Origin: Saccoglossus kowalevskii
Taxonomy: Eukaryota > Hemichordata > Enteropneusta > Harrimaniidae
Length of the DNA: 27,276 bases
NCBI RefSeq assembly: GCF_000003605.2
Contig: NW_003145291.1
Span: forward strand, 97,372 to 124,647
Reading direction: 5' to 3'
The notes under the pieces are model-generated. The model saw nothing but the letters and a program-made list of their open reading frames with translations, was not told where the DNA came from and made no database searches. Of this stretch, positions 5,611 to 27,276 are shown piece by piece (position 1 is the first letter of the stretch; each line of letters opens with the position of its first letter). Made by a program: the position numbers and the translations under genes.

Positions 5611-7004
5611 CGTTGATGAATTGAAAAGTTGTACCAATGAGTGGAGCAAGTGAGTTGCATTTAACGTTTCCGTGTGGCGATGTATGCGCCCTCGGGCCAT
5701 GCCCGGTAATCATGTCCATTAGTCACCTTTGACCTGCTAAGAATACAAAACGTGAATTAGACTGATGTATAATTACTCCTGAAGTTACGGTCACATGGAT
5801 TGTGGTATATGTGAATGTCAGATGAATTGCGTACTACAGTGCACAAAAAGCATTTTGGGGTACATTAACGATTTATTACTCAGTTCAATCATTGTTAATT
5901 CTCGTTCGAACAAATACTGAATTTATTCTGCACACCTCATCCGTCTATTGCAGTATTTAACTCCATACAGTGAACGGCAGACACCTTGGGATATTATCAA
6001 AATATTAAAATTACAATTAAATATTAGAATTTTTTTTAAAAAAAGCTTGAGATCCGTATTCACATTTTTTAAAATAAATATGTTTACCAACCAAGGTGCA
6101 GCTTTCTGTCGTTCACTGATTACACAACTAAAATACTCATTTTGTTTTTACAAGCCGACCAATCCGGTGGTTGATTGGTAGGCAGTTTGCTTCAAAAATA
6201 TCTATTCTCGAAAGTTAATGGCACACATCCGTCAACCAACTTTACTGATTGAAATATGCGAAAGCTAGGATATTACGAGGCGAAAGCGAATATTTTCACG
6301 CTGCTTGAATTGATTTGACGTTTAAATGCACAAGCCGTCTTTTATCTAAGATATACAGTGACTAATGTACTGTAAGTGAATGTTGGTATGCATACAAAAC
6401 GTTATAGAACACATGTCATTCGGACATACAGTTCTCGAGAAAAAATGGCCGATCGGCGGCCAATTTTTTCTTTCGAGTATGAATTCCAGTTATCCGTGGC
6501 GGAAACAATGAGGCAGGTTTCCATTCGTTAATCATACACGCGTTGTCCACGAAGCAGTGCTGTAATGACGTCATTATCAAGCGGAAACCCTGCACCCGCC
6601 CTGGTTATTATAGTATTACATACAACTTGGAGTACATAAATCACGTGACGTGTTCACCTGATTCAGTTTTTCAATCAATCCACCATGTGTGCTGTAATCA
6701 TGAACGTGTGTAACAACCAGTCTCATTGAACGTTTGATGGGAAATGTGTAAATGCGAGTATTTGTTCTTTTATTCCCATGTCTTGTGTTGCAATTTGACA
6801 CCCCACGTGTTTATCTGCACCGCTGTTATATAGGACACCGCTACGAACTCTGTACACGGTACGTAAAAGATATTTGCCCAACAAACACACTAATGTGTTA
6901 ACATACAACACCTTCTTGATAACAGAACAGTGCTATGACGGGAGGGGTCACGGCGTAATCTTGATGAAGGTACATGTACATCGCGCTCAAATAAAAAATA
7001 AAAC
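5611..7004. other. Gene-free stretch
   Basis: I recognise no gene. TCACCTTTGACCT at 5723-5735 reads AGGTCAAAGGTGA on the minus strand, a near-consensus DR1 nuclear-receptor site, which may be chance. Short frames such as that at 5948-6181 show no domain or codon signature. Confidence 0.45.
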
Positions 7005-7265
7005 TTTTATTTCATTGTACATATAATTCAAATTTATTTTAAAAATCGGTTCAGATTTTTATTATCGAGATTAATGAGAATCTAAATTCGATAATTTCGA
7101 AATATATTATGAAAACAGTCTGATTGCAATCTAATATATTGTACAGGCTGTATTTAATATATATATATATATTTTATTTTAATATTTTTTTATAATTTTT
7201 TTTATTATTATCATTACGAACGACAGGTAAATAAATAATAAATTAAAAATACACGAGAAATAAAT
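7005..7265. repeat. AT-rich low-complexity block
   Basis: This stretch is nearly all A and T. It includes an (AT)n run around 7160-7175 and long T-rich and TTATTATTA runs, ending in AAATAAATAAT-type sequence. It has no coding potential. Confidence 0.85.
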
Positions 7266-7369
7266 AATTAAATCAATATTTAAACAAAAATTAGAACAAG
7301 CAGCCTATCGGCTGGGATAGCTCCGGTGTTAGCAATTCAAATTTCACAAGCATTCTGAACAAAACCTAG

Positions 7370-7810
7370 ACGAGTCCACACGCCGGCGAGGTACCTACAC
7401 AAACAAAAATAAAGCAATTGGGGGAGCTGTTTTCAAGACGAAGTAGGAAATACATATATGTACCTATATGTTCAACATCAAAGCAGTCAGACTTGTGTTT
7501 TTCAACAAGAAATTGAAAATACGTAACTTTTTACTAAAAATTACTAAATTATTCATCATAATTTGAGATTTATAGAAATGAATATATCTAAGAGAGCCTA
7601 GTCCACCCGAGTTACCTATCAACAGCAAAACAATCGAACTTCAACAAAAAGTCCAAATTATAACGTTTTGCCATAAATCAGTGACAAAAGTATTCATCAA
7701 GTTAGACGGAGAATGAAAAATATAACCACGAAATGAACAAATCTGAGAGTGGTCCACCTGAGGTACCTATATGTATAATATCAAAGCAATCGAACTTGCA
7801 GTTTTCAAAT
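7370..7810. repeat. Diverged tandem repeat, about 152-bp unit, about 3 copies
   Basis: The anchor TACCTAT followed by a CAAAGCA.TC.GACTTG-like block recurs at 7461, 7613 and 7764, spaced 152 and 151 bases. Each later copy is preceded by GTCCACC.GAG.TACCT and by a GAAATGAA....ATCT.AGAG block, so the match is not limited to one motif. Copies are well diverged, which suggests an old array. No protein frame is shared between units. Confidence 0.75.
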
Positions 7811-8550
7811 TGGCTAGCCATTCAGCTGCACATTGTAACCTTTGAGCGCCAAAGTCATTGAACTTTCGTGACCTTTCACCAACTTGAAAATGTCATACAT
7901 GTCGTATAATCAAAACCAGAGAAAGTGTGCCCATTTCATTCAAAATAATACATAAAAATAAATAATACGTAAACATAAATATTGACAGAAAAAATGATGG
8001 CATACAGGAATGCTTGGCAACATTCGAAAAATAGTGGGGTGGTGCATAGTAGAGAATTTCAGTGTAATCGCGTGGTGGACCTCCCCCACCCCGACATGTC
8101 ACGTGATGACGTATCGAATCAGTGTCACGCAATTTTTGACAACCAAAGGATACGCAATGTGGTCCGTGCGTTTGTTATTAGAGGGGGGGGGCAATAAGCT
8201 TATATTTGACGAAAATTTATGTAAGCACTCCCGATTTGAAGATGATCCCCATTTCGAGGCAAAAGTCGCTTGCTGATCATACACATCGTTGACTGTGATT
8301 TCTTGCCGCCTTTGTCCGCCATCATCACGATGATGCTCTCCCGTCACGAATCAATGTGATTACACGAATGTTTTTTTTTTCTGTTTGTACGTTGCATGTT
8401 TTTACCCGCTGAAAGTGAATGCAACAGCTGAGGTATGTTCTATTAATACACGACGGAATAGCATATCCATACCGTCATCGTGTTATATCAAGGTCAGAGC
8501 AAAGCAGGCAGCAAACCGCATAACCCGGATACGTGTCCGTAATTAAGATC
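7811..8550. other. Gene-free stretch with overlapping short frames
   Basis: Several short open frames overlap on both strands between 7893 and 8347. None shows a recognisable domain. A G9 run lies near 8182-8191. I see no supported gene. Confidence 0.4.
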
Positions 8551-8710
8551 GGTGCCCACTGCAGGTGGCGGTGGCGGAAAAAAGGCGCGCGGGGGAGGGG
8601 TCTGATACACAATGCAGAGATCTAATGAACCACTGGCATAGATTAAAATCGTCCGAAAATAAAAAAAAATGAAACTTGTTTTTTTTTTTTGGGGGGGGGG
8701 GTAAATTTGA
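8551..8710. repeat. Low-complexity, possibly dispersed-repeat fragment
   Basis: The composition shifts abruptly to GGTGGCGGTGGCGG, GCGCGCGGGGGAGGGG, then a long A run, and a T run passing straight into a G run at about 8680-8701. Such islands are often pieces of old dispersed repeats. I cannot name a family. Confidence 0.4.
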
Positions 8711-10033
8711 TGGCGGTTTGTATTCAAAATATTGTGAGTTTTAATATGTATTGAATTATAAACATGGGAAATGCGGCCATTCATTGATCATTGGAGACTC
8801 ATATCCTTCGGGTTAATGTTATACGAATGATGTTACATAAATATTTTTTTTTTTAAATTATTAACACGGATTTATTGTTTTAAATATACGCGCGTTTAAA
8901 TTGTTTCCTATAAGGTGGTAGACAAATGAATGTTACTTAATAAACTGATCACGTGCAAAAAACGTGTATTATGTACAGTTCAAAAACAAATACTTTGTGT
9001 GTTCTTGTTTGCTTTAGTGGTTTCTATGACAATATACTTTAGGTTTACACTAGCATTACAACACGCAAGATAAAACACAAGACGCGGTTTCGGAAATGAG
9101 CGGTAAACACAAATATAACGCACTGACAGTCACGTACCCTGATTAGCGAATCAGAAGCGGTTTAACATCGCAGCAGACAGAAACACGTGTTGTACAGTAA
9201 TTCCAATACCGCCGCATCATATCAGCTGTTCACGTAGACTTTAAATATCATCATTAATTTACATAACAATAACTTGTTATAATGAGCCAGAACTGGCCTC
9301 AGTTAACGACCATGTTCTGTTGTTACCGCGGGACTTTGATAGGTAGAGTTTAAAAGCAAGGCGTGTAAAGTATACCAATCGTCGGTACCAATAAATGGAT
9401 TGACAACATCGCGCGAAAATTCCAAAATTCTTTTGCAAAAAAATAAATAAATAAACAGTGAAACGTTATTGCTTAAATAAATAATCACGCGTCTATGCTC
9501 AGTGTTTTTTTCGGTGCGAAATGATGTAGTGTATTGTTGATTTATATCAAATGAAGTCCATTTTAATGAACTACACATGATACAATGCTATGAACATGCC
9601 CACTCACGTCCAATTTCATGGATGGCCTCAATTTCTGCAAAGGATAACCAGCCTTCATATTATAGCTATTGACGAACGTCAAAAGGCTTTATTGTTACGT
9701 AACTGGAGATTGGGCGACAGATAATTCGCTAGTGTCTCTGAAAAATATATCTGAATAATAATAATAAAACGAATGTTGCAAAGCCTCACAAAATTTGTTC
9801 AGAATGCGGAGTCGTCATGGTGGGACTAATATTATCTTATGACGTAATATGGTTGTGCCATACATTAATACATGGTGTAAACATTCAAGTCGTTGAAATG
9901 TGATGTATTCAGTTAAAGTATTGATCGACGAGAGAGAACTTGCATAACTAAAAACGTTTAGCAATTTTGTGCACATGCGACTATGCTCGACATACTTGCA
10001 TTTGAAGCGCCTCGAAACTGCTAACCCTTCGTT
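8711..10033. other. Gene-free stretch upstream of the spectraplakin promoter
   Basis: No gene is recognised. An AAAT simple repeat lies at about 9437-9455. GC content rises towards the right end, approaching the promoter region. Confidence 0.45.
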
Positions 10034-10122: not shown

Positions 10123-10634
10123 AAAATTACCGTTATAAACGTATCCGAGGTCCTTTCATTAGCTGTATTCGCTGTTCTATGGTTTATGCGGTTCCCAGCT
10201 GGGATATTGCAGGCTGTTTGGTTGTTCGACGATTTCTATTTCTGTCAGGACTGTTAATTGTTACATCGTTGTCTTCAATTGCAGATCGGTGGACCGGCCA
10301 GTGGCGACTGGCATATTTAGACAGCATTATACCAACACCGGGGGCTCTAGGACAAATAACTGCGACAAGTGGAGGCCATCGTCAACGGAGTATTGCCCGT
10401 AGAAGGCATAGCGCGTATAGGCTACATTGAAGGAGCGGCCATATTCAATATTGCCAGCATGTTTAGCGGCTGAAAATGACGTTTCTCGATTGTCTGGAAC
10501 TATGAATTTTGAATGAAACATCGAGTTAATATTGGACGACAATTCTGTTGATTGACTTGATAATCGGTGCTAAATTTCCACCCTAAACAGTCAATGGAAA
10601 ACCTAATCTCTCGTGTGCCATAGTGATCATCAGG
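10123..10634 (+). other. Probable 5' leader / promoter-proximal region of exon 1a
   Basis: Relatively GC-rich sequence lies between the CCAAT boxes and the exon 1a start codon. TTGTCTTCAATTGCAG ending at about 10283 looks like a 3' splice site, so a noncoding upstream exon could be spliced here. An 83-codon frame starts at ATG 10179 and contains a hydrophobic run (FLFLSGLLIVTSL). I recognise no homologue. If translation of the spectraplakin is efficient, that ATG is probably not in the mature leader. Confidence 0.4.
10594..10623 (+). CDS. Possible 9-codon upstream ORF before exon 1a
   Basis: ATG at 10594 opens a nine-codon frame (MENLISRVP) that stops with TAG at 10621-10623. This is 11 bases before the main start codon and in a different frame from it. 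The context AATGG is moderate. If the transcription start lies upstream, this uORF could dampen translation of the 1a isoform. It may equally be chance. Confidence 0.3.
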   Translation: MENLISRVP

Positions 10635-10791
10635 ATGGATTATTTCGGAGATCGGGAGGAGAGAGAGCATAACAAATCCATCGTCCGCCTGTTGGAGGAA
10701 CGACGATCACGCCCCGGCTCACCGGCACGGACACCAAATCCGCCACTAGAGCCCCTGGACCTAGCTGACCGCGCCGTTCTCCGTATAGCAG
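10635..10791 (+). CDS. MACF1/DST: Spectraplakin, alternative first coding exon 1a (MACF1-type N-terminus)
   Basis: ATG at 10635 has a strong Kozak context (A at -3, G at +4) and is the first ATG in its frame after an upstream stop. The exon encodes 52 residues plus one base and ends at a consensus donor, G|GTAAGT (10792). It starts MDYFGDREER, a charged and probably helical stretch. Residues about 25-41 are Arg/Pro/Ser-rich, and it ends DLADRAVLRIA. Joined to the exon at 11814, it continues Asp-ERDEIQKKTFTKW, in frame. From memory, vertebrate MACF1 has a very similar ...AERAVVRVA just before DERD, which supports both the family and the splice. Spectraplakins are giant cytoskeletal linkers. 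Their N-terminal paired CH domains bind F-actin and the C-terminal part binds microtubules. This exon contributes the isoform-specific N-terminal tail. The intron to the shared exon would be 1022 bases. Family sure; exact isoform name inferred. Confidence 0.85.
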
Positions 10792-11077
10792 GTAAGTTTG
10801 GTATTATGTGTACATGCTATCTTTTAATGTGTACATGTCTGTCAGGGAGGTGATACTGACAACACACTGGGTCTATTGAGTAGTCCCATTTCATTGTCCG
10901 ATTCAGGTCATATGATCACCTTTGATTCCCTATTTTAATGTAGATTCAGCCTATTGTGGGCGCTGTTTAGTGACAGCCAGACAACGGTGGACCGGAGGTG
11001 ATCGCGGATAGCCAGGCCCACATTGCTTTTTGGTGTCTTTCACGCCTCCAGTGGTTTGGCTGCCTAATAATAGGGGG

Positions 11078-11095
11078 CCAATCTGCATATAAAAG
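11078..11095 (+). promoter_or_regulatory. CCAAT plus TATA box, candidate promoter for exon 1b
   Basis: CCAAT at 11078-11082 lies only five bases before a canonical TATAAAAG at 11088-11095. Transcription would start near 11110-11125. TTCACTTT and an AP-1-type TGACTCA (11121-11127) lie in that zone. A transcript from here would reach the exon 1b ATG after about 360 bases and carry small uORFs (for example ATG at 11206, MAAVV then stop). The unusually tight CCAAT-TATA spacing lowers confidence. Confidence 0.4.
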
Positions 11096-11400
11096 AAGAA
11101 GGCCTTCACTTTAGATGTGGTGACTCATCGAGATCTAGGCAGGTACTCAATTCGACGACGACGCGCCACTCGTGCTGCCAGCCCTGAGTGTGGTATCGAT
11201 CGCCGAAATGGCCGCAGTTGTGTAGCAGTGTGGATCTTTTGAGCCCACCTGTCTGCAACCTGTGACGATCTCGCCCAGACTAGGGCCGATTAGGATTGAC
11301 AGTTCACTCGCGGACAGCATCAGCCGAAATCCAGTATTTTCTTATCGAACACGTTACCCCACGCGTTCCGCTACAGTTTATTACCGCACCATCTCTGTCG

Positions 11401-11409
11401 GTATATATA
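11401..11409 (+). promoter_or_regulatory. TATA-box candidate just upstream of exon 1b
   Basis: GTATATATA lies about 80 bases before the exon 1b start codon. A start site 25-40 bases downstream (TCAATTT at 11442 fits a loose initiator) would give a short leader with no upstream ATG. It competes with the TATAAAAG at 11088 as the 1b promoter. Both could be used. Confidence 0.4.
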
Positions 11410-11483
11410 GTCTAGTCACCTTCACAGCGATCGCACCGAACTCAATTTAGCAAACAACTAGTTACTCTTGTTTATAATACAAT

Positions 11484-11568
11484 ATGGCATCGGGCAAAAA
11501 TCCGGCTGATGTCGAACCTGACTTCAACCCTGCCGAATATTACGAGCAGAACCTAACCAGATACAAGG
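11484..11568 (+). CDS. MACF1/DST: Spectraplakin, alternative first coding exon 1b (dystonin-type N-terminus)
   Basis: ATG at 11484 has A at -3 and G at +4 and starts a 28-residue exon plus one base, ending AAG G|GTGTGT (donor at 11569). The peptide begins MASGKNPADVEPDFNP and ends EYYEQNLTRYK. Joined to the shared exon it reads ...RYK-Asp-ERDEIQKK. From memory, vertebrate dystonin has an isoform whose first exon ends in a similar acidic/aromatic ...VLERYK before DERDKVQKKTFTKW, so this appears to be the matching alternative start. No acceptor precedes it, consistent with a first exon. The donor GTGTGT is weaker than that of exon 1a. The intron to the shared exon is only 245 bases. N-terminal variants in this family alter actin binding and subcellular placement; the specific effect here is unknown. 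Confidence 0.82.
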
Positions 11569-11813
11569 GTGTGTATTTTGTTAAATGTCAATCACAATTT
11601 TAGTTCTTCCTACACGTTGTTCAAATTTCGGAACTCAGTCCCCACCTTCCAAGGTCAACACCAAGTCAGCAACATACCTTTGACTCTATTTATATTTGCA
11701 CAGTTTAATATTGTTGATTTTTTTTTTATATGCAACCAGTTTATAATACGCCATTTGATGTTTGCGTTGAAATTGATATTATTTATTTGCAACCACCTTT
11801 GTTATATTTCTAG
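11569..11813 (+). other. Intron 1b (245 bases)
   Basis: It begins GTGTGT and ends in a pyrimidine-rich ACCACCTTTGTTATATTTCTAG acceptor region, shared with the 1a splice. T-rich runs such as TTGATTTTTTTTTTATATG occur. It has no separate gene. Confidence 0.7.
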
Positions 11814-11875
11814 ATGAGCGTGATGAGATCCAGAAGAAGACGTTCACAAAATGGGTGAACAAACATATAATCAAG
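11814..11875 (+). CDS. MACF1/DST: Spectraplakin, shared second coding exon: start of CH1 actin-binding domain
   Basis: Acceptor TTTCTAG precedes 11814. The first two bases AT complete a GAT (Asp) codon with the single G from either first exon. Twenty further codons follow, then donor AAG|GTAGGG (11876, phase 0). The peptide contains QKKTFTKWVNKH, an almost invariant signature of the first helix of the CH1 domain in plectin, MACF1, dystonin, shot and vab-10. This helix carries the first actin-binding site. The variant here ends HIIK where vertebrates usually have HLMK or HLIK. In plectin, too, many alternative first exons join a common exon at this same point. The rest of CH1 (the ...DLYEDLRDGHNLI region in relatives) must be encoded in later exons, which I do not find in this window. 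Confidence 0.92.
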
Positions 11876-14371
11876 GTAGGGTTATGTTACTCTAATGTTA
11901 TTACAGTTCCACCAATACATAGATGTTGCAAGTTGCTTTATCCACAGTGCTAACCTGAAAACCTAAGTCATTGTAAAATGTAAAACCTTATCGTAGACAA
12001 CCGAGTGTTGTCATTCTGGAGTTCAATTGTTTATCTGCAAGTCTTGCGATCTACTCTTAGTCAGAGTGGGAAATCGCCCCCCCCCCCATTGCATACCGAT
12101 AGATAAAAGCCCAAGAATAGAACCGTCATTCGTGGTGTAAATACTAATGAGGTATCCATTCACTATGATTGTAAAGAGATTTTTAATTCTCTTGTCAAAT
12201 GAATGGGCATCCACTGTGGAGGTGTAGGCGACAGTCATCCAAATTAATACTTTTATATAAATTTGCTGAAAACTTGTGAAAGTTTTTATAATGTGTAAGT
12301 CCAAATGGCTCAGAAGCTTCACCTGTACGGCATGTATGTTTATATTTTTGAAGCCCTGATGCTAATGGTATGCAAATCATGAAAAGCTCGAGGTCATGCC
12401 CCTTTTCATGCAGCCTCTGCAGGGTATATATACAGATTTGAGCGTTCCATTTCACTGTATTTCACTCAAACTTAGTAATCGTTCATTTGATTTAAGAATA
12501 ATACAAAGGAATTGAAATGTACAAGTGATGTGTTTACAATTTTGGTCAGGCCTTTAAATTTTATTTACAATACTTGAGACAATGCACTTTTTTTTTTTTT
12601 TATGATGTGCAGTTTACACTGGCAATAAAATATACAGTGATACAGTATTGCTGGTTTAACAGGCAATGCAGTAAGAAACTTTGTTTTTCAGAATTGAGGA
12701 ACTAAACTTTTTATCATGTGAACAAAATATGACGTTTCACATGTAAATGAAAGTGTTTCATTCATGGAAATTACTTCTTTTCGGACGATTCTGTACCATG
12801 AGTAAATTTTAATGACTTTGTATATCCACTGCTTGCATTTCTGTTTGCAATACTTAAGTTTTGATCTTTTCAAACCCTGGTTTGGGAATGTAGTGAGCAC
12901 CCCAATGGTGCTATTGATAAAATGTACAACAAGAAAGAATAAAATTGCAACACTAATTGATATCTGACTAAACATGGGAATAGCATGATTGTATTTTTGA
13001 CACAATGAGTACCAGTATATGAAAGGTCAACTTACCCCAGATGTAAGGTTGTGATGAATAATGTATCCATTTTATTGAAATGAAATGTAAATAGCTTGAA
13101 TGAAATAGGTAACGTCATTGGTTAACTCGTGGCCTGGAACAGTTCACTGGCATTCATTAGAGAGCTAAAACTCTGAATGGCACCATTTTTCTCACTTTCT
13201 TAATGCCTTTTATATCATAATCACCCACTTCCCACAGGTTTTGATTAAAATTTTTGAAAAAATATGGAAAACTTTATGCAAGACTATTCTGCGAAAAGTT
13301 ACAAAAAATGACTTTTTAGTTGAAAATGGCCGACACCCAGGGATTGATTGTCATTCTTCATGTACCTACGAGGCAGTGCCAAAAAAAATGCCACTGTGCA
13401 TGATAATAAAAGATACAGACTAAGCGTTGTCGCGAAGAATACACACTCCGCTTTTAACTCTGGCTTATTAAACCCCATAAAAACCACCCAGAACATTAAT
13501 CTCATTCAGAAAAATATCACAGAATCTAACAGTTGGTTTGTAAATTTTCCACTGGCCCAATTAGAATTCATTTTTCAATATCTGGTTAAACATGCATTCA
13601 CATACCCTGTACTCAGTGAGTGTTTTCCGGCCGTCCATTCATCAAGATGATTCATTCATGTCTGTGTAATTGGATACGTCTGAACTCAGTGTGCAATGAG
13701 CAATATTGTAACTGCAATTATTTCAACTAAACTTCACCTTCAGATGAATCAGTTTGAGTCACAATTATTTCAACTTTGTATATTTTTATTCGTTTGACTT
13801 CTGGTTTAAAATAAAGGTATAGATCTTTCTATCACTGGAGCCGAACCCTCATAAACAGGTGTGATTATACCTTCAACTGTGTGGGGGTTTATAATCAAAG
13901 GTAAATGTAATGGATAATATAATTATTCGGCATCAACAGTTTAATCAAGTGTACTTTAAATATACTTTAATTGAGATTTGAAATAATCTGATTGATCCCA
14001 CCACTGTACAGTGAAAACATTTTTTTTTTTTTCGAATAAACCTGCGTACGTGTCTGTGTCATTCATATTAGAGGCCGGCTAATGACCTAATGGTTAACTA
14101 AATAACCTATCCGTGTGTGGGAGTGTATTTGTGATGTCGTTACACCCTGTATGCCTCCATATCAGAGTGTTTTCATTGTTTAATGTATGTAAAAAAATGT
14201 CTGTGTCCTGTTTTGAAATTGTTAGCAGGGATTTTGTTACAATGAGGTATATTATATACCAGTATAGTTCCAACGAAAAATGTTTATTCTAATTTTATAA
14301 TATTTACATTCCATGATGTATAATATGATAACTTGTCCTCCACGTGTTCTAGTCAAAATAGTGGCCATTTT

Positions 14372-14384
14372 AGGTCAAAGGTCG
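14372..14384 (+). promoter_or_regulatory. Near-consensus DR1 nuclear-receptor site
   Basis: AGGTCAAAGGTCG is two AGGTCA half-sites separated by one A, with one mismatch at the last base. DR1 sites bind RXR, HNF4 or COUP-TF type receptors. It lies inside the long intron. Presence of the motif is clear; function is unproven. Confidence 0.3.
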
Positions 14385-14827
14385 AAATAGAATATTTGGT
14401 TATTTATGTTCTATTGTTGATACCAGTAGCATATTAATTAGATTTTGCTCTTGATTAGTTATCTATATAATTGGGAGTGGCTTATTAGGGTGTGGGTCAT
14501 GGCCAATAAATGACTAGCATTTCAGCACTAGCCTATCAGGTGAATTTATTTGACGTGCAAAAATAAAGTTTCATTCTGAATAATAACTTTCACATTCATT
14601 TGTGATAATTTGTGATTGCCTATCAAAAAGTCATTCATGATTTCTGAAAATTCGTGATTAAAAAAATAATTACTAGCATCCTCACCAAAATTTTATCTAT
14701 TACCGGTACTATGTATTTTTGTATATTTTTTCATAGAATAAACATAATTTCTTATTGCCTACTGGTCAAAATATTGGGGACCCCCCCCCCTCCCCAAATA
14801 TGAGATTTCTATAATGTTTATGAGAGG

Positions 14828-15011
14828 TACCGTAAAATCTGTACTAGAAGCCGCATCCCTTATAGAAGTCGCACACATACTTTTTGAATAGTTGAGAACC
14901 AAAAATTCATCATTTCTCATATGTGTAGATGCTCCAATAGAAGATGCATCCCCTCTATTGCATTGTACAATTTTAATAGAAGCCGCGGTTTCTAATACAG
15001 ATTTTACAGTA
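14828..15011. mobile_element. MITE-like element with imperfect terminal inverted repeats (184 bp)
   Basis: The left end reads TACCGTAAAATCTGTACTAG and the reverse complement of the right end reads TACTGTAAAATCTGTATTAG. That is two differences in 20, and the match continues for several bases (AAGCCGC versus AAACCGC). Internally, variants of TAGAAGCCGCATCCC / TAGAAGATGCATCCCC recur (about 14845, 14860, 14940, 14978). There is no coding capacity. A target-site duplication is not clear; AGAGG occurs on both sides but not directly at both ends. TACCGTA-type ends are common among short DNA elements of marine invertebrates. It is a non-autonomous DNA transposon of unknown superfamily. Confidence 0.65.
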
Positions 15012-16642
15012 ATAGAGGAGACATGATTGTCGAACGTGGTATGGCAAGCAACATTTTCAAAGCTACTGCTTTTCGGTAGTTAATTGTACTCATGAATAAT
15101 TAATTAGTGATGTCATTTTAAACCAGTTAATGGCCAGCTAGTGTCTTATCTATGGGTAAACCTTAAACTTCGTGCCTCTATGTCGTAACATGGGTGCTGA
15201 ACAACGGCTAGAAATTAAATTTTTTTTTTCAACTGATCAACCAATCTAGCTCGACGTTATCAGTGATTGGTTCACTGGATTACTCATAGCAATCCTACCT
15301 AGACTACTTTCTGTTCCCACACACATTGACGTCAAATGCCCGCCTACCAATATCTTTTATGACTCGAATTGTTATTGTCACATTGTGCGTACCATTGTAG
15401 ATGAGGAGTTGCTTCCTTGCACACTAACAATAGAACCATATAATCAGCTCAAACCCTGGATTCAGTTTACAAATTCATGCCAATCAACAAAAAAAAGTTC
15501 AAAGGCACCAAACTTTTTGTAATTATGTTAAATTACTTTTGACTTTTTTTTTCAGCACTGAATAGAATTGTTCAATTTTGCTTCAGTTATTGTTAGTTGA
15601 AATGTACAGTGTAGGTTATTGGCCAGGAGATGATAGTGATATGATTGTATGTTACTTGTTAACTCCAGTGATAATGTTACAGTATGTAAATGAGCATGAA
15701 GGTCTTTCTAGATTAAATCTGAAACTTTTTAACTTTTCAGCTGAGTGTAACTCTCCTAGATGGTTGCAGTTTTAGGTAATCCTTTGCAGCAAAAAAACCT
15801 CATAATCTTAAGTTTAAAAAACTTAATTGATAACTAGTTGTTTCCATGCTCCAATTTTCCTTATCACAGAATCTTACCTCTACACCATCTTTAAGTCAGG
15901 GCTGTAATTATATTAGTTATCTCTTTGAGCACTATAATTTTCCCGCCAAAATTTTTGTGCAAAATTTTGCACACTTTTCTGAATTTTTCTACAATTTTTG
16001 GAGCAGGGTCAAAAAATTTGTCCCATCAAGAGTCTGAATTTTTGTAATTAAGGAATTAAATTACACATATAGAATGAGTAGCCTTACAGATTATTACAAT
16101 CCAAGCTGTAAACACTGAGCGGACCCCTGTTTATTGTGTGGCCTATCCTACATCATAAACTTTTATCATATTGAACCAAAGTTGAACTTTGGAGTTATTT
16201 GATGTGAAGATAACCCTCAATTAGTACTATGAGAGATCAGTTCCCTTAAATCACAATGTTCATTGCATGACTTCGTTTCTAAAGCAGGAATTCTGCTGGC
16301 TTCTTTTGAGAAGTGAGTTTTCGAATACAAGACGATTGAGACGTAATGACAATTCGTTGTATTGCTATCAAAATTGAGACCGGTTTTAGTTAGCTAGTTA
16401 TAGCTATGTTGAAGGATTATGGCTAGACTAGTCTGCAATTTGAGAGAAACCACAGGAAGTTAGTTTTCAGGATGTAGTTCCAACAAAACAAGCTAAGGCT
16501 CCAGTTTAAAAATGAAAAACAAAAATGTAGATTTTCATGACAATTAAAAAAATCTTAAATAAGAAAAAGTTTGCATTACAATATCTTAGGACCAAAAACA
16601 ATTTGTTTAAATTCAAATGACAATCAGCATGATTCTGCATAT

Positions 16643-16661
16643 ATTTGCATATGATTTGCAT
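16643..16661 (-). promoter_or_regulatory. Paired POU octamers, 11-bp spacing
   Basis: ATTTGCAT occurs at 16643-16650 and 16654-16661 (ATGCAAAT on the minus strand). The two starts are 11 bases apart, about one helical turn. ATGCAAAT is the canonical Oct/POU site. See the near-identical pair at 18978 in the opposite orientation. Confidence 0.4.
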
Positions 16662-17820
16662 ATCATTACTTGAGCAAAGTTTGCAACTATACATGTGCAA
16701 TACTGGAAATGCTGGAAATTTATAAGCATTTGTCAATAAAAGAAATTCAGGATTATTTGAACAATGCGTTGTTGTATTTCTGAGCATATGTGCAGGTCTT
16801 CCAGCACATGGAAGTATTTTCCCTGTCTGGCACTGGACTTGTGTAAACAAACACATCATAGCAAGTGAGAACCAAAGGAAGTGTAATAGCCCCCCCCCCC
16901 CCCACAATATCAACACCATACTGACAGCAGATTGTTGTACGAAATTCAAACTATACATATACCTTCAGACCTTCCTAGCTACACAGGCATTTTGGTTGTG
17001 CCAATGTTTTGACTGCACCAAAGTTTACTGTAGGTTGATATACATATGTGAATGTACTTGCTGGTACAAATACTATTTTTGAGGTGGGGTGCTTGACAGG
17101 ATATGTCTCAATAGGTTAATCTATAAATTACACTCTCTCCCAACCCAAATCCCAGCGCCTACATGATGAGACATCATTGGACCTTCCTTCCGTCTTATTT
17201 GCTTGTTTATTCAGTCATTTCCCTGCACCCACTGCCAACAACCTCTTCACTTTCACATAAGGCATATCTTCGTTAGTCATGGAAAATAACACAATTTTTT
17301 CATCCACATTGAAAACGCTAAAATTTATACAATTTAATGTTCAACATTAAAAATATGGTTACTGTAGATTGGTCCTAATACTTCTGAATCTAGGTCATTA
17401 AAGCCCAAGTCAATGTGTAATATTTGAATGATTTAAATTCCACCATTCTGTGATAATGGTTGTTGCTATTTGGGGATCAGTATGCAACATATTTCGTTTT
17501 CAAATGGATATGTGGATATTATGATTATTCGTCCATAAATGATTTTTCAGCATAATGATGTTCTGTGGTCAGTAATTGGCAATTGATGCCTTGACGATGA
17601 AATCCATACTAAGTCGTTTTTTTTTTCAAAATGAAAGAAAATTTCAATTTGAAGGTGAAATTTATAAGATACAACGTTGGATAAACATATTGTATTTAAA
17701 CAGCTAACATTTTTGAAGCTGAAATGGCCTTCACAACATTTCGTCTTCAAATTATGAAACATTATTCACAATCAAAGTTTAACTGTTTATGTAAATACCA
17801 TCAGTTGCTGCACCTGAGTG

Positions 17821-17880
17821 CGTGGATGCCTCCTTCTACGTGGATGCCTCCTTCTACGTGGATACCTCCTTCTACGTGAA
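17821..17880. repeat. 18-bp minisatellite, about 3.3 copies
   Basis: CGTGGATGCCTCCTTCTA repeats at 17821, 17839 and, with one change (GATACC), at 17857. A partial copy follows. Copies are nearly identical, so the array is young. Confidence 0.92.
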
Positions 17881-18402
17881 TGTTTCTGTCTTTCTCATCT
17901 TGTCTTGATAAATTGTAAAATGTTCTTTTATAGAAATTTATAAAATATCTATACTTTAGAAGATCCTCGCGCTACATTCAAATTTAAGAAAGTTATACAT
18001 TCATTGGCTATAGCTGCCACTTGGTGTTGTTCATTACCCATGAGTCTTTGCAGATTCCTTTCAGTCCTTGGTCAATATTACTGCAATACACAAGAAATAT
18101 ATTCTGTATGGATAGGTATACATCCACTAAAGCATTGTGATTTATTAAATAGTTTAAAATTTACAAAAAAATTTATAAATATTTTCCATGAATAACATTC
18201 ACGCCTTCGTGAAACAGAAGGTAACTATTTTAAGGGGCAATATTACTATATACAGTATACAGTGTTTTTGTTTTCTAATTTAAATTTGTAAAAATAAAAT
18301 TATTTGAAATATCCTGGTATATTGAATATGTTATGTATGTGTAAACGATATTGACCAGTTCATGATTGTTACAACAAACAACAAATTCCTCAAAAAAAAA
18401 AC

Positions 18403-18430
18403 AAATTTCAAGTTGTAAATTTCAAGTTGT
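18403..18430. repeat. 14-bp tandem duplication
   Basis: AAATTTCAAGTTGT occurs twice in immediate tandem. It is a simple local duplication in AT-rich intron. Confidence 0.85.
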
Positions 18431-18977
18431 AAAATTTATGTGGCATTCAACATTTCACTAGAGACTGCAAGTTTTGCATAATTTTATCCTCAAATTACAG
18501 TCAAATCATGGACATTTCTAATGGCGAAACATTACCGGTTTACAACGTATCATAGCACTCACTTAATGCAGTCTGATTTATATCCATTTGTCACTGAAAG
18601 CAAAATGATTAAAGCGGTAAATGGTGGATCAGTTACTTAATTGCCAGTTCTCATAGATCAGAATCATAGTCTGAAAGACTGATTTATCATGAGATGAGTA
18701 CACCTATAAAAAAAAAAAGTTGATGACATTTTTTCCCCCTAATGTGATTCTTCTTCATAGTGTGTACATGTATTTATCCTTGGTTGGCGGCCATTTTGAA
18801 TTCAAAATTTTACCTAATTACCAAATTTTAAAATTTAGAATGAGCGATCATCACTTTTCTCCAGATTTGAGAATAACATAGAATTCCTGTTGGACAACAC
18901 TATTTAAGATGGCAAGCATGGCTAGGGTCTTTATCTCTGAACTCACAATATTTTGAATTAGTGAATTAGAGAGGTCT

Positions 18978-19028
18978 ATGCAAATGATATGCAAATTTCA
19001 CCTGCATACAGGTATGTTTTATGCAAAT
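18978..19028 (+). promoter_or_regulatory. Cluster of three POU octamers
   Basis: ATGCAAAT lies at 18978-18985, 18989-18996 and 19021-19028, with a fourth at 19100-19107. The first two form ATGCAAATGATATGCAAAT, which differs at one base from the reverse complement of the pair at 16643-16661. It is a candidate intronic enhancer element, or a fragment of a repeat. Confidence 0.4.
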
Positions 19029-19175
19029 TAATGCTCTCTGGGTCAAAATCTAAACTGGGAGAATGATTGTTTTCAATTATACATATTAAACTACCTGTAA
19101 TGCAAATGTACAATGTATATTTCTGTTGAATTGCTTCTTATGTTCGAATATTTGTACAATGTTCCTCAAATTTGA

Positions 19176-19285
19176 ATGAACTCCCTAGGTTACGCAGTAA
19201 TTTCAGTGCCTTATATATTTGTACAAGTGTGATATTTACAAGGAAATAAAGTTCAGATGAAAATAAGAAAACTTAGGGAGTTCAT
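19176..19285. repeat. Inverted repeat, 16-bp arms around a 78-bp loop
   Basis: ATGAACTCCCTAGGTT (19176-19191) matches the reverse complement of AACTTAGGGAGTTCAT (19270-19285) at 15 of 16 bases. The match does not extend outward. It could be a small MITE-like element or a relic of an inverted duplication. No target duplication was seen. Confidence 0.65.
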
Positions 19286-20685
19286 CTGAAGGGATAGATC
19301 TCTTATCACCCCTTTGTAGATAATGAAGTGTTCCAAATCATCTTTAGCATGCAGCACATGTGTTTATTTGCCTTTAGCATCCTTTTTAGCTTATCCAAAT
19401 TCGTCACACATCTGACTTGCCTCCGGGATCAATGGAAAATTGTCTGCCTTACAAGTTATAATAACGTTGTCATTTTAGTTGAATTTTGTACAAATTTTCT
19501 CTGCTATATAATATGCATCATTGCACTATACATTAAAATGTGTCAAGTGAAATATAAAAAAAATGTCATACCTCTTATTAGTATATTTTGACATCAGAAA
19601 TATTAATCAAATCAGATCAAAATTGTACAATGTTGAATTCTTTTTATTTGGTCTAAATATTCAGTATTGGAATTCACGTAGAGGTCTAGAATGAAATTTG
19701 GTGTAAAATAAAATCTTAAATAATTTTAATTAGTTAAATTGTAGAAAGCAATCCCATGGGAAGTCCTTATGTTTCAGGAACTAACCAATAATCAAGAGAT
19801 GAATTGATATTTCATCTGTTTGTCGTGGTTAGTTGAGTTTGATGGCATCTCTTTTATTGTGTTAAATATATATATCTAGTTACATTTTTTTATCTTGTAT
19901 AACGCCAGATATTTATTTATCCTCTATTTCTAATCGTAAATATCATGCTCAAGTTGGTTTGATCTTCTTGACAGCGATTATCTCAGTTACAAAGGTATGA
20001 TGATTTTTTCTCTTAGAACACCATAATTTTTTCTCACCAAGTGTTACATTTTTATATATTTTCCATAGTTTCTTTCTTAGTTTTGACAAAATGGTCATAA
20101 TTTCTCATTCATTATTTCACCTGGAAAAAATTCAAAGTTCAAAAGATTATTCTGTTTTTGTGTAATGAAATCATAAACCTGTCAAGTATTTAAAGTGTGA
20201 CATCTCATACTGTGGTTCATTGTACATGTAGTTTGCTATGAACGTTGGGGTATCATAAAGGTTACTACATCCCTTTTTTATGGAAATTTGCAAACAAATG
20301 TCACAAATACATTGTGAGAAAGAATGTAAAAAAAATTAAATTTTCGGTAGCAACATTTGTCATGAAGGTTTATGAGATGTAAACTGTTTAAAGTTTTTGC
20401 GTGGAATTTACAAAATTTGATGACATTATGGCATTTGTGACGACAAAATTTCACAAAGTTGTTGACAGTCGCAGAAATTCATGCAAATTTATCTCTCAGA
20501 AATTAAAGTGAATTCATTTATGTTTCAGCGCTGAACTTAAAATGTCTATTTTATCTAACCCATTTTAATAAATACTTATTTTTTAACATGATTGATGAAC
20601 TATACATGATCACTTAATTGATTGACTTGTTCCTTTGACCTCAAATGATCTCAACATTATAAATTAAATATTCAAATTGGTAACT

Positions 20686-20745
20686 GTCAGCCATCTTGTT
20701 TTCCACCTGTCCACCATCTTGTTTACAACCTGTCCACCATCTTGA
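20686..20745. repeat. 23-bp tandem repeat, about 2.5-3 copies
   Basis: CCATCTTGTTT or CCATCTTGAAT recurs at 20691, 20714 and 20737, exactly 23 bases apart, with ACCTGTCCA between copies. It is a small minisatellite. Confidence 0.88.
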
Positions 20746-23700
20746 ATTACATTTCATTAAGAACAGCTGTTAAAATTTGACTGAATTATTTTCATACTTG
20801 ATAGTATTTTAAGGAAAGCACTATTATTTTTGGTATTACTTAAATAAAATGTTTTATTTTCTAGAACAATATGGCTGCTTTTACTGGATCATTTTACAGT
20901 TAAAAAAAATCCTGTGAACTGAAAAAATCAATGATTTTGACATAAAACCTTGTGAATCTACTTTTTTTATTAAAATAGTGAAATTAAATCCCAGTTAATG
21001 CTTTTACAATCAATTTCAGTAATGTGGATGCTTTGGCTGTGAGACATCTTTGATGTTGACCAAATCCAACTTACAATAAACAGATTTAAAAAGCGATGGT
21101 CATCGTTTTGTGCCATGTTCGATATGAGACTCATAAATACATTGTTTGTTAACATGAAATTTGAACACGTGCTGTGCGACGACAACCACCATCCATCCAT
21201 CTCATTCATGTGTATGGCTTTTAATTTCCAAAGTACACATGTTTGTTTGACATCAATGGTGATATGTACAGTATGTAGTCTAATCTAACAAGTTTAATAA
21301 TTTGTTATCATTAAAAAGCAAAACATTGCTAAATAATTTTTATTATGAAATTAATAGCTGACAGATTTGTTCTGTAAAGTACACTGTTCTATGGATTCCA
21401 AATTTTGGACTATTCCCACACAAAAGTGCCCGTACCCATTTAAGTAATGATGAGTTTAATAAACTTAAGTTTGACCTTTCCCGTTTGACTTATTATATTA
21501 TATCTCTGGGTGTATATTTATGTTGTAACCCACACAACTTATTTATGTTCACCAAGTGTACACACAAAGTCAGTTATTGTTAATATTAACTCTTTTTCCC
21601 TACAAAAAAGGGTGGGGGTTGTCGTGATCACAGGTGTGCATTTAATATGGATAGCGTACTATGCAGTGTGACCTTCCTGGTCCCAAGTAACACCACCTTC
21701 TTTAGGTGTTATTTTCTTTCAATTCAAGTAGTGTTGAGTGAACACACGTACATATATTATAATTATTATACCAGACTTTAAACAAACAACACTTTTTGGG
21801 GAAGTTTATTCAACATTCAAAAAACTATTATCATTTTTTGTCGCCCGCTAACTGAATGATTATAATGTCTTGAAGGAAAAATGTAAATATTTAATGTTTA
21901 TTGTTTTCTTATCAAGTAATTGGAATTTTTTCAGAGAGTAAATTGCAGAACCGAAAAGTATATGTCAATGAATACCTAGTCTGATCAGGTATTAGTTTAT
22001 GGAAGACAAAGTTTTGTAAATTTAATGAACCAGAGAATGTTGCAATTTTTGTAGTGTTGAAAAATTTTAGTAAAATTTAAAAAAAAATTGTTTATGTGGG
22101 AAAATGTATTATCCATTTTAGGCAGTTGAAAATAAAATTGCCTTGCATTCTGAAATAACTAAAGAATGATTGAATCTGAAATATTATTCTGTTGTGTAAC
22201 TAGCTACTGGTCTTGTGTAATTGGGAATTGACGATAACCTTGGGTGGTACAATGGACCCCCTTATAGTCACCTGATTGAAAGCAAGGCTAAATGCAAATT
22301 TATTCATAGGTTGTATTTAGTTACTGGTAGGTATGTGCAGTTACTTGGATTCCTTGTTGTACATGTACACATTTGTAAACCAAAAACTTCATAATACTTT
22401 TCCTTATTTTATCTGGCTTTATTGTCTCTTTTTCTACCTTTTAATATATGAACTACATGTATCATTTTTCATTATGATGTAATAATGATATCATTAATAT
22501 TGTTATATTTGGGCTGCATAATAAGCTGCATAATAAATCTTATAATAAATTTGTTTTTCACTTTAATAAATTTATTCATGTTTTTTTTCAACCAAAAAAT
22601 AAAATTTATTGCAAAATGCTTCATTTACTCTATAGAAATATAGAAGGGCACAGAAATTGCATTTATTAGATACTAGTAGTGGATCATTGAAATATAACTT
22701 ATTGTGACCATAACCATTTGCATGTGTTTTTTTCGAGAAAGGGATGCTAGAAATGCAAATGAAAATGAAAGAAAATATGTTTGGTGACACAACAAGTTTG
22801 ACTGGTGACTTGAAGTCACCTGCAGCATGGGAGTTTTCATTGTGTGAATTCATTGCAGTGTTCGTCTCATATTGTTGTATTGTTTTAAAGGTTGTATAAC
22901 TTTTGATTGCATGCAATAAATCAAATATGGTATTCAGTTGAAAAATAATGACCTATAAAATATGAAATAAAATGCTTTTAAGAGCTAGGGTTAGGGACAA
23001 TAACGATTGTCTATTTCCGAAGACTGTTAAAATATTACTTTCTCTTTCACAGTTAAATGATTTTGCGATTTGTTTCGTATTGGTAACCCTGCAATGGTAA
23101 CCATGGTAATTTTGTTCAACTTTTCCACTTTTGTAGTAGTAAAAATACTTGTAGATTTACCAGCGAATTGTATATCTCATAACAAACCCCTAAGAACAAT
23201 GTAAATCATTCAGTCTGCTAAAAAGTTTAGATCGTGGGAAGATATAGTACACAAGTTTTTCATGTGGTGTCTTTCGTTGGATGTTGCATTATAGCGCTTG
23301 TCATGAATATGTCAAATTGTAAAAAAATTACAGAACTGAAGACACAATTATATAAAAGTGCTCAGCAAGTAAATTAAATCAAAAGCCAATTTCAGCCCCA
23401 ACTAGATTACTTCGCTGTAGCTTTTCAGTGATGTGTTGTGAATTTATATTTATTATATGTATAAGATCTGGGCTGTTCTAGTTTGCTTTTTGTTTGTTTT
23501 TCCAAATTGACTTCTCTTCATGAATAATTCATCGCATTACGTAGTGCTTAGTGACATCCTTGATGAACTACACCATTGAATGATAATTTTACTCCATGCA
23601 TAAAGTTTCTGGGTTGGTGAGTTTGGTAAATGCAATGCGAGACATAGTGGAAGGCGACAATGCAATTCTTAAACTCCAGTCTGTGTTGGTCTGACTGCAT

Positions 23701-23954
23701 CTTACAAAGCAAGTTCTGCAACTGACAATAACCAGAGATCATGCATGGTAATCTCATGGGAGACTGTTGGTGTTGCTATGGAGAGAAAGTGCTTTAAAAC
23801 TGTTCATTGATGTGTATGTGATAGTGGCTACTGTTAATGCTTTGATGTAAAATCGAATGTAAACATAGCATGCAACTATTCATAGCATGCAGAGATTGTG
23901 TGTGAGCATCTATGTTGTCATGTCTGTAAGGGGGGGGGTTATTTGGGGTATGTG

Positions 23955-24556
23955 AGGGAGCATGTCATGTCTGGAGGAGGAGTTGCTTATGATGTTGGAG
24001 CACCCATGTCATGTCTGGAGGAGGAGTTGCTTGGGATATAGGGGAAACCCATGTCATGTCTGGAGGGGGAGCTGCTCGGGATTTTTCGGGAGTAGCCAAG
24101 TCATGTTTGGAGGGGGAGTTGCTCAAGATGTAGGGAGCACCCGTGTCATATCTGGAGGGGTAGTAGCTCGGGATTTCGGGAGTACCCATGTCATGTCTGA
24201 AGGGGAGTTGCTTGGGATATAGGGAGTACCCATTAATGTCTGTAGGTTGTGTTGCTCAGGATATAGAGTTTCCAATTCATATTTGAAAGGGGGAGAGCAC
24301 CCATGTTATGTCTGGAGAAGAAGTTGCTCGGGGTGTAGGGATTACCTGGGTCGCATCTGCAGGAGAAGTAGCTTGGGATGTAGGGAGTAGCCGAGTCATG
24401 CCTGGAGCGGGAGTTGCTCAGGATGTAGGGAGTGCCCATTTCTTGTCGAGGGGGGTGCTTGGGATATAGAGTACACCCATGTAATGTCTGCAGCGGGAGT
24501 TGCTCAGAATGTAGGGAGCACCCATGTAATGTCTGGAGGGGAGTTGCTTGTGGTAT
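23955..24556. repeat. 45-bp minisatellite, about 14 copies
   Basis: The anchor CATGTCATGTCTGGAGG and its variants recurs at 23961, 24005, 24050, 24097, 24142, 24187, 24231, 24273, 24302, 24346, 24392, 24437, 24478 and 24523. The spacing is mostly 44-46 bases, with one short interval of 29. Between anchors lies GGAGTTGCTCGGGATGTAGG-like sequence and AGGGAGCACC. Because 45 is a multiple of three, imperfect copies leave open frames on both strands (15-residue repeats such as ILSNSPSKHD on the minus strand). I see no sign they are translated. The + strand is G-rich, beginning with a G9 run near 23930. Confidence 0.92.
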
Positions 24557-24998
24557 ATTGTGCAATAAAAGTTACACAAACCCATAAGGTACATGTTTGT
24601 TTTCAATAAACACTTCAGTAAAAGTTCTATTTTTAGTCTAAGATTTAATACCGCTATTTAAAGGGGTGTTAGTTGTCATGGATGCATGCATTCGAAATAA
24701 ACAGCGCTTTTCACCCACCTACATATTTGGTATGCATAGTATGGGGCTTATATCAAACACACCCGACAGTTATGAACATCATATACCGTATCATTTAATT
24801 GATAAAAAAACTGGAGTTTTATTAGTTTTGTTAAAAAACTTTGTCCCATTAAATTTAAGTTCTTAAACATGCATTTAGTGTATTAGGAAAGAAAAGACCA
24901 ATGTGTGTCTAGATTGCTGCAATAACTATCAGTCTTTTGTATTATTCAGGCGTAGAATGTCAAAGGTTTGCAGGGCTCTATATTAAATCATGTTCCCT

Positions 24999-25155
24999 TC
25001 TTGTCTGTTTATGTACGATCCGTGTACCTATCTTGTCTGTTTATGTACGATCCGTGTACCTATCATGTCTGTTTCTGTACGATCTGTGTACCTATCTTGT
25101 CTGTTTCTATACCATCCGTGTTCCTATCTTGTCTGTTTCTATACCATCCGTGAAT
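24999..25155. repeat. 32-bp minisatellite, 5 copies
   Basis: TTGTCTGTTT or ATGTCTGTTT recurs at 25001, 25033, 25065, 25097 and 25129, exactly 32 bases apart. Each is followed by a GTACGATCCGTGTACCTATC-type block that drifts to ACCATCCGTG in the last copies. All three forward frames are open across it, because repetition without stops produces apparent frames. Confidence 0.93.
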
Positions 25156-25320
25156 GTTTGTACTTAAAATTATTTCTTTTGTTTAATCTTCCATAATTTC
25201 TCACATTGATGGGCATCTCCTAGATGCTTTCGTTGGAGTCTTGAACAATAAACTCAAGTTTCTATTGCCTAAAAGTCTTGATCAAATTTTGAGTCATATC
25301 CAAAATGGGTGAGAAATACA

Positions 25321-25690
25321 ACAATATTCGAACCCATGTTGTGCAACAATTGTGTTGTTTTAAAAGTTGACTAAGTTAGATGTGAAATTATCGTGGTACA
25401 AAGATAGAGTGTTTTGCCGGGTGCAGTCTTTGCTTTATAGCTCAAATTAAAGTACCCTGGTATATGGTGCACAATATTCGAACCTGCGCTGTGTGATGAT
25501 TGTGTTTATCGGTTGACAAAGTTGGATGTCTCATGGAGAATTTTCATGGTACAAAGATAGTGGGAGTGTTTTATCGGGTGCAGTCGTATGAAACACTTGC
25601 TTTAGGCTGGGGAGTGTAGGCTGTGAATCTTATGTCATGACTTATCATGCTTTACTACAACACTGTTACTTTATAGTCCAAATTAAGTAG
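25321..25690. repeat. Diverged tandem duplication of about 150 bp
   Basis: ACAATATTCGAACC starts copies at 25321 and 25471. Both then carry matching blocks in order: GTTGAC.AAGTT.GATGT, TGGTACAAAGATAG, GAGTGTTTT..CGGGTGCAGT, TTGCTTTA, and a CTTTATAG..CAAATTAA end (about 25433 and 25669). The second copy carries extra sequence before that end. It is an old local duplication; nothing coding was recognised. Confidence 0.75.
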
Positions 25691-27276
25691 AATACTATGA
25701 AGCAAAACATGAAATGTCGCACAAAATCCTCCAAATCTGAAAATGCACAGCATATACCCACAACTGTAGTATCAAAAACATAACATGTTATATGATTTGT
25801 TGAAAAAGAATTAAAAAAAAACACAACCTCAAAGTGGGAATTCACTTCCAAGGTATATTTATCATCCTTATTATATTAACCACCCCTCATTTTGCTTATT
25901 CAAACCTTACTCATCGATATTATTAATGTGCCTTGTCAAACTTTTGAATCAACTTTGATTGAAAGTACGCAACACTGAAGAAATCTGGGTGTGACCAGTG
26001 ACCCATATCCTATCCCAGTCTTTTTTATCACAAGCTCTTAAGATAGGAATGCATGTTTTGAGGCATGTATTATTTGTGGCACTAAGTGATTTAGGCCTCT
26101 ATTGTCTCAGCGTTTTGTTTTATAACTTATTATTATTACTGGTACTTTCACTATGTGCATATACAATCAGTCGTGCATTAGACGTTATACGAAGTCTTGA
26201 TAAGACAACACCCATGAAATACAAGTTTGTGCCAAAATGTCATCTGTATGTGTTCAGTTGAGTAGAGCTAACCCATATCGAAAGAACGATAAGTAGATGT
26301 TTTGTACAGGTGGTTATAGTCTACTGGATTCATACAGTAGTTCACAGTTACATTTGAAAAAAGAAGCATGCTACTTAAAGACAAATGGGCCTGTTTATGT
26401 TACATTTACAATTTATTTCTCAGTGTATCAGTCTAACAATATACCGTGTTACGGACTGTACGATACACATGAATTTGGCTTACTATTAAACATCATATTT
26501 CCAGTCAAAATTTTGGCACAAAATTTTTTCACTTTCATAAATTTCTCTATCACTCTGCTGTTAATTTATGAACGAATTTATGTAATTTTCTATTTTTTGA
26601 AGGTCTTGATCAAGTTTGGTAAAATAAACGATCATGAATTTCCTTTGAAACATTTTTGTGGTGTTTGTTTTGACTTTGTCAATTTCAATTGTAACAGCCA
26701 GCACCATGAACAAAACACAGCCATTGTCACCAGAGGTGCTCAGGGTGGTAAAAATCATAGTGTTTTTTTTTCGATTTGCATGTTACATGTATGCTGATGA
26801 TAAAAATTCAAATTATAGTTGTAATTATGAGTGAATATCATCAATTAAGTCGTGATATTTTCAATATGCAAATTATAGAAGACGAAGTCATAACAAATAC
26901 CACTAAGTATCTTCCAAGGCAGATTGATAGGGAGATAGCAGTTTTTAGTATCAGTTTATTTTGGTTCCCGCTGCGAGTTTATTTTATGCAATGGGGCAAA
27001 AGTAAACTTTGATACTGAGAAGTGTTAGTGAAAATGGACACCAGTAGATCAATACTATGAACAGAAAATCTGTTTGTTTCGAGGCAAGGGCTGTGTGAAC
27101 TTGAAGTTGAGCCATCATGAGTGCCATGTCTATCTATACAATAATGACAATACTTGTTTAATTTGTTTTTCTTTCTTTTCTGTGGTTATTGCTGCCCTAG
27201 AATCAATGCAGCGTTTAAAGTCTTAGGGCTGTCGCCATGGTGAATCACGTAGATGGCGTCTCGGTTGATATGTGCG

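What the first reader, a model, noticed from the sequence alone, without database searches (positions are those of the whole stretch)
10635..11875. Two alternative first exons of one spectraplakin gene match both vertebrate paralogue-type N-termini
Seen: two ATG-starting exons, each with a donor in phase 1, both fitting one shared acceptor at 11814 to give Asp-ERDEIQKKTFTKW. Known: vertebrates carry separate MACF1 and dystonin genes, and plectin joins many first exons to one common exon here. Inference: the ...DRAVLRIA end resembles MACF1 and the ...RYK end resembles dystonin. If so, both starts existed in one ancestral gene before the duplication and were kept as alternative promoters in about 1.2 kb.
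Basis: partly seen in the sequence, partly recalled or inferred. Interest (0 to 1): 0.7.

Follow-up and report, generated by a model that had tools for sequence, protein, structure and literature searches.

The report
Two alternative starts, one spectraplakin gene
This animal's spectraplakin gene, which encodes a giant cytoskeleton linker, appears to have two alternative first exons resembling two start types of the vertebrate dystonin gene, so the arrangement looks old and conserved rather than new.

Summary
Exon A (10635-10791) and exon B (11484-11568) each begin with ATG, end in phase 1 on G|GT, and fit one acceptor before exon 2 (11814-11875). The frame continues through three more CH1 exons after a 66.6 kb intron. 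CpG o/e drops from 1.06 to 0.46 at about 11.6 kb, fitting transcription that starts here.

The paralogue assignment does not hold. Exon A's end is 9 of 12 identical to plectin 1 (3F7P), 10 of 12 to recalled dystonin isoform 2 and 8 of 12 to recalled MACF1. Exon B's last nine residues are 6 of 9 identical to recalled dystonin isoform 1. Published mouse Dst primers match pieces of both recalled starts and pair with primers in CH1. The two starts thus correspond best to two promoters of one vertebrate gene, not to MACF1 versus dystonin. That both precede the vertebrate duplication remains likely.

No transcript was available, the organism is unidentified, and the vertebrate N-termini except plectin are recalled. 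Known kind of biology; modest interest.

The parts
10635..10791 (+). Alternative first exon A (dystonin-isoform-2 / plectin-1 type): MDYFGDREEREHNKSIVRLLEERRSRPGSPARTPNPPLEPLDLADRAVLRIA + G, phase 1, donor CAG|GTAAGT
11484..11568 (+). Alternative first exon B (dystonin-isoform-1 type): MASGKNPADVEPDFNPAEYYEQNLTRYK + G, phase 1, donor AGG|GTGTGT
11814..11875 (+). Shared exon 2, start of the first calponin-homology domain: (D)ERDEIQKKTFTKWVNKHIIK
10792..11813 (+). Intron A-2 (1022 nt); contains exon B, whose own intron to exon 2 is 245 nt (11569-11813)
11402..11410 (+). TATA-like box TATATATAG 82 nt before the exon B ATG; weak evidence, one of two TATA-like places between 9001 and 11814
11876..27276 (+). 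5' part of intron 2 (66,565 nt in all), CpG-depleted; exons 3-5 of CH1 lie beyond the window at contig 175812-178319

Best explanation
This is the 5' end of a spectraplakin gene, probably the only one, of a non-vertebrate animal. Two closely spaced promoters each make a transcript with its own short coding first exon. Both first exons end in phase 1 with G and splice to the same acceptor at 11814, giving two proteins that share the actin-binding domain and differ only in the first 52 or 28 residues. Exon A is homologous to the ...LDPAERAV(L/I/V)R(I/V)A start of plectin 1 and (recalled) dystonin isoform 2 and MACF1. Exon B is homologous to the ...YEDVLERYK start of (recalled) dystonin isoform 1. 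Shown: exons, splice borders, phases, continuing frame, CpG step. Inferred: use of both promoters, homology of B, non-vertebrate origin, and that the different starts send the protein to different places, as reported for dystonin a1/a2.
For: Exon structure and frame. The exon 2-5 protein matches plectin (E 1.5e-55) and MACF1 (4z6g, E 4.6e-54) over all 108 residues. Exon A end against 3F7P: 9 of 12 identical, 0 of 5000 shuffles as good. Exon B against recalled dystonin isoform 1: last nine residues 0 of 20000 shuffles, last thirteen 1, last twenty 36, global 9. Cross-control: A does not resemble the isoform 1 type (3320 of 20000 at nine residues). Site control over 276 + strand G|GT sites. Primers for Dst isoforms 1 and 2. 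CpG o/e 1.06 to 0.46, best split 11601, range within 2 log units 11401-12201, gain 47.1 against a maximum of 16.7 in 500 permutations. Among the 16 matches, five are this locus; I read the other eleven as actinin-, filamin-, spectrin- and nesprin- or dystrophin-like (names mine, some pieces short).
Against: No RNA evidence. Dystonin and MACF1 N-termini are recalled; only pieces of the two dystonin ones, not the junction residues, are checked through primers. In the PDB search with exon B the plectin matches that enter the exon do so by at most 8 residues; two beta-spectrin chains matched from query residue 9 or 10 onward (alignments not shown), so part of B's signal may be common to the superfamily; not followed up. 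No dystonin chain was among the matches. Exon B's local alignment alone is weak (99 of 5000 shuffles), and B also scores above chance against the isoform 2 type at nine residues (244 of 20000). The own-genome search with exon B did not complete. The genome search scores only its best candidates, so a second spectraplakin cannot be excluded.
Confidence: 0.8

Rival explanations
1. One reading: exon A is the MACF1-type start and exon B the dystonin-type start, so each vertebrate paralogue later kept one of the two.
For: Exon A does resemble recalled MACF1 (8 of 12, 14 of 5000 shuffles) and B resembles recalled dystonin isoform 1. A review says MACF1a1 and a2 have identical ABD with different 5' UTRs (PMC5979291, passage).
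Against: The A-type is in plectin 1, and recalled dystonin isoform 2 matches better than MACF1. Mouse Dst isoforms 1 and 2 have starts matching both recalled types.
Confidence: 0.08
2. Only exon A is a true start; exon B is a chance open stretch or a dead exon with a weaker donor.
For: Exon B is short, has a GTGTGT donor, and is supported only through a recalled sequence.
Against: 6 of 9 identity right at the splice junction against a background maximum of 3 in 276 + strand sites; right phase, right last base, ATG at nearly the same distance (28 against 30 residues).
Confidence: 0.1
3. Exon A is not a first exon but an internal exon of a longer upstream start, as the membrane-anchored dystonin isoform 2 has sequence before its A-type stretch (recalled). 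This would leave the rest of the best explanation standing.
For: An AG lies just before the ATG (10632-10633); everything upstream of the window reads N; dystonin-a2 has an N-terminal transmembrane domain (PMC3352338, passage).
Against: In-frame stop at 10584 and an ATG at the head of the exon; CpG step close by.
Confidence: 0.15

Closest known systems
Dystonin (DST/BPAG1) N-terminal isoforms 1 and 2
   Same: Two alternative starts, matching the recalled A and B types, joined to the same CH1 in one gene; three transcription initiation sites reported (PMC4171495, passage).
   Different: Here the two exons lie within 1.25 kb and A carries its own ATG; no transmembrane-coding stretch was seen. 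No third start was found with one recalled MACF1 alternative N-terminus on the readable contig.
Plectin (PLEC) alternative first exons
   Same: Twelve first exons spliced to one exon 2 (PMC8468861, passages and legend); the plectin 1 start ends in LDPAERAVIRIA (3F7P).
   Different: Two first exons seen here against twelve; neither A nor B resembled the recalled plectin 1a start.
MACF1 (ACF7)
   Same: Exon 2-5 protein aligned over all 108 residues (4z6g); A-type start (recalled).
   Different: A's end is less like recalled MACF1 than recalled dystonin isoform 2; 4z6g starts at the shared Asp and says nothing of the first exon; a B-type start in MACF1 was not tested.
Drosophila short stop (shot)
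   Same: Single invertebrate gene with start sites A-D, of which the C type lacks CH1 (PMC9320987, passages).
   Different: That the A and B types carry CH1 is my inference; homology of the fly's first exons with A or B was not tested.

Membership tests
spectraplakin / plakin gene with actin-binding domain | plakin-type CH1 beginning DERD.(V/I)QKKTFTKW(V/I)N, best matches plectin and MACF1 | tested here: met
spectraplakin / plakin gene with actin-binding domain | CH2 following CH1 | tested here: inconclusive
   a recalled CH2 piece found no convincing match on the readable contig, which ends at 182498
spectraplakin / plakin gene with actin-binding domain | plakin domain and spectrin-repeat rod | not tested
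   no search made
spectraplakin / plakin gene with actin-binding domain | GAS2-related (GAR) domain at the C-terminus | tested here: inconclusive
   GAS2 matches on C598 and C177; C177 also has a CH match and looks like a Gas2-like gene; C598 is not linked to this contig
alternative first exons onto a shared exon (plectin/dystonin arrangement) | two ATG exons, same phase, same acceptor, open frame | tested here: met
alternative first exons onto a shared exon (plectin/dystonin arrangement) | both forms transcribed | not testable with these tools
   no RNA data
dystonin isoform 2 / plectin 1 type first exon (A) | LD.A.RAV.R(I/V)A directly before the Asp | tested here: met
   3F7P; dystonin and MACF1 recalled
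dystonin isoform 1 type first exon (B) | YE..L.RYK directly before the Asp | tested here: met
   against a recalled sequence; only its piece QAYEDV is checked,

The most novel reading that the evidence does not exclude
The A/B pair is an ancestral two-promoter module, older than the plectin-dystonin-MACF1 duplications, kept in about 1.2 kb in this animal, kept as a pair in dystonin, and reduced or expanded in the other paralogues; if so, dystonin's isoform-specific targeting is older than vertebrates.
Probability: 0.58. Interest if true: 0.42.

Novelty: new member of a known kind. Interest (0 to 1): 0.32.

Why it matters
If both starts are used, the different N-termini of dystonin (actin filaments for a1, nuclear envelope and perinuclear membranes for a2, PMC3352338, passage) would rest on a promoter choice that predates vertebrates and could be tested in an invertebrate with, probably, one gene instead of three. 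It would also suggest that the paralogues inherited alternative promoters rather than inventing them.

Tried and rejected
Rejected: the MACF1-versus-dystonin split. A third, myristoylation-type start: a recalled MACF1 alternative N-terminus gave no convincing match on the readable contig (best E 5.1). Two CpG-rich patches in intron 2 were checked for ATG-to-phase-0-donor stretches of 20 or more codons: 0 in 1,501 bases and 1 in 3,000 bases, against 0 in 5,554 and 1 in 15,347 bases of control intron; too few to judge, nothing is claimed. RNA families, tRNAs and plasmid similarity gave nothing. Two paper searches for peptide strings returned no paper. The organism was not identified.

My own errors: searches were translated one base out of frame; one search gives the right frames.

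Full report
Anatomy. The window lies in G000:C3616:97372-124647 of a 572 Mb assembly in 4830 contigs. A ends CAG|GTAAGT and B ends AGG|GTGTGT; both leave a G that joins AT of exon 2 to make Asp. Each ATG has an in-frame stop upstream and no earlier in-frame ATG. The intron from A is 1022 nt and from B 245 nt; intron 2 is 66,565 nt. Exons 3-5 (90, 78 and 93 nt, contig 175812-178319) have GT/AG borders and keep the frame, giving A or B followed by 108 residues of CH1. Those 108 residues match plectin at E 1.5e-55 and MACF1 4z6g at E 4.6e-54, ahead of beta-spectrin at 5.8e-38. No CH2 exon was found on the readable part of the contig with a recalled probe, and much of the contig (128,125 of 182,498 bases, including everything upstream of the window) reads N.

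One gene, probably. Searching the own genome with exon A plus CH1 gave 16 matches. Five are the exons of this locus; the other eleven translate to CH pieces that I read as actinin-, filamin-, spectrin- and nesprin- or dystrophin-like (names from my own knowledge, some pieces short). GAS2 domains occur on C598 and C177; C177 also holds a CH match, so C598 is the free candidate for the spectraplakin C-terminus (inference). A single spectraplakin fits a lineage outside the vertebrate duplication; a published phylogeny places the dystonin/MACF1 duplication before the divergence of vertebrates (PMC9145010, outline and passages). The search tool scores only its best candidates, so the count is a lower bound, and the organism was not identified.

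More than chance. Upstream of the acceptor, 4 ATG-to-phase-1-donor stretches of 20 or more codons exist on the + strand with donor motifs chosen after seeing A and B; only A and B end in G. Over 276 + strand G|GT sites, the nine residues before the junction match a reference at 6 or more positions only at A and B; the next best is 3; among 348 - strand sites the best is 4.

Which start is which. A ends LDLADRAVLRIA. Identity over 12: plectin 1 (3F7P, letters) 9, dystonin isoform 2 (recalled) 10, MACF1 (recalled) 8. Local alignment shuffles as good: 0, 2 and 14 of 5000. B ends YEQNLTRYK; dystonin isoform 1 (recalled) ends YEDVLERYK, 6 of 9. Shuffles as good: local 99 of 5000; junction-anchored nine residues 0, thirteen 1, twenty 36, global 9, each of 20000. 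The anchored lengths were my choice. B and recalled isoform 1 also share MA at the start and PA at residues 7-8. Cross comparisons: A against the isoform 1 type 3320 of 20000, B against the isoform 2 type 244 of 20000 at nine residues; the second is above chance but far weaker than the match to isoform 1. Against the reading: in the PDB search with B, plectin matches reach at most 8 residues into the exon, while two beta-spectrin chains match from query residue 9 or 10 (alignments not shown), so part of B may be superfamily signal.

Check on recall. A mouse study lists primers for Dst isoforms 1 and 2 (PMC7325434, passages). In one of three frames each, the forward primers give QAYEDV and NLPKHE, both contained in the recalled human dystonin sequences, and the reverse primers give HNLISL and YEDLRD of CH1. 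This supports that one vertebrate gene joins both start types to the same CH1. It does not read the junction residues, so that isoform 2 ends LDPAERAVLRIA and isoform 1 ends LERYK still rests on recall. A research paper says three transcription initiation sites can give three BPAG1a/b N-termini (PMC4171495, passage), and a review gives different N-terminal targeting for a1, a2 and a3 (PMC3352338, passage).

Where transcription starts. CpG o/e, with three minisatellites left out, is 1.06 left and 0.46 right of a best split at 11601 (range within 2 log units 11401-12201; gain 47.1 against a maximum of 16.7 in 500 bin permutations); TpG+CpA rises from 1.21 to 1.36. Low CpG continues in the readable rest of the contig except for bins at 145372 and 151372. 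In invertebrates methylation lies predominantly in gene bodies (PMC3985014, start of abstract in the listing), so I read this as the germline methylation footprint of the gene body beginning at the first exons. It is independent of splice-site reasoning, but cannot separate A from B, and the permutation ignores correlation between neighbouring bins. A TATA-like box lies 82 nt before the B ATG; such boxes are common in AT-rich DNA.

Mechanism. Two promoters about 0.85 kb apart (ATG to ATG) each supply a short head to the same actin-binding domain. By analogy with dystonin and plectin, the head would steer where the protein sits. Steps shown: sequence, phase, acceptor, frame, CpG step. Steps inferred: promoter use, targeting, common descent of B.

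Verdict. Real, well formed and ordinary in kind: an apparent invertebrate example of the alternative-first-exon arrangement known from dystonin, plectin and short stop. In eight paper searches on the subject (listings, with passages of some papers) I saw no statement that the dystonin isoform 1 and 2 starts are shared with invertebrates, but the library lacks most subscription papers, and older spectraplakin papers may say so.

Noticed in passing
window 11401-12201: Sharp step in CpG o/e (1.06 to 0.46) at the first exons, with a rise of TpG+CpA, as expected for gene-body methylation that begins just after the transcription start.
   Followed up: partly
window 4017-4803: Minisatellite array with units of 32/64/96/128 bases, strongly C-rich on the + strand (GC skew -0.74 in 4001-5000).
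   Followed up: no
window 23961-24548 and 24999-25152: Further minisatellites in intron 2, of about 45-base and 32-base units.
   Followed up: no
L011 about 999-2498 and 6000-8999 (G000:C3616 about 145646-147145 and 150647-153646): Two CpG-rich patches inside the otherwise CpG-poor readable intron 2; possible internal promoters or young repeats; a search for start exons was too thin to judge.
   Followed up: partly
G000:C3616 109247-175811: Intron 2 is 66.6 kb, between the first CH1 exon and the rest of the domain.
   Followed up: no
border of exon 2 and exon 3 (window 11875 onward): The plectin chain 1mb8 has a five-residue insert exactly at this border (alignment); 1sh5 is longer by the same number (table only). 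Whether a matching microexon lies in intron 2 was not tested.
   Followed up: no
query residues 9-48 of exon B + exon 2: Two beta-spectrin chains (6anu_f, 8iah_M) matched the exon B query from residue 9 or 10 (alignments not shown), a hint that the stretch before the CH1 domain may share older ancestry with beta-spectrin.
   Followed up: no
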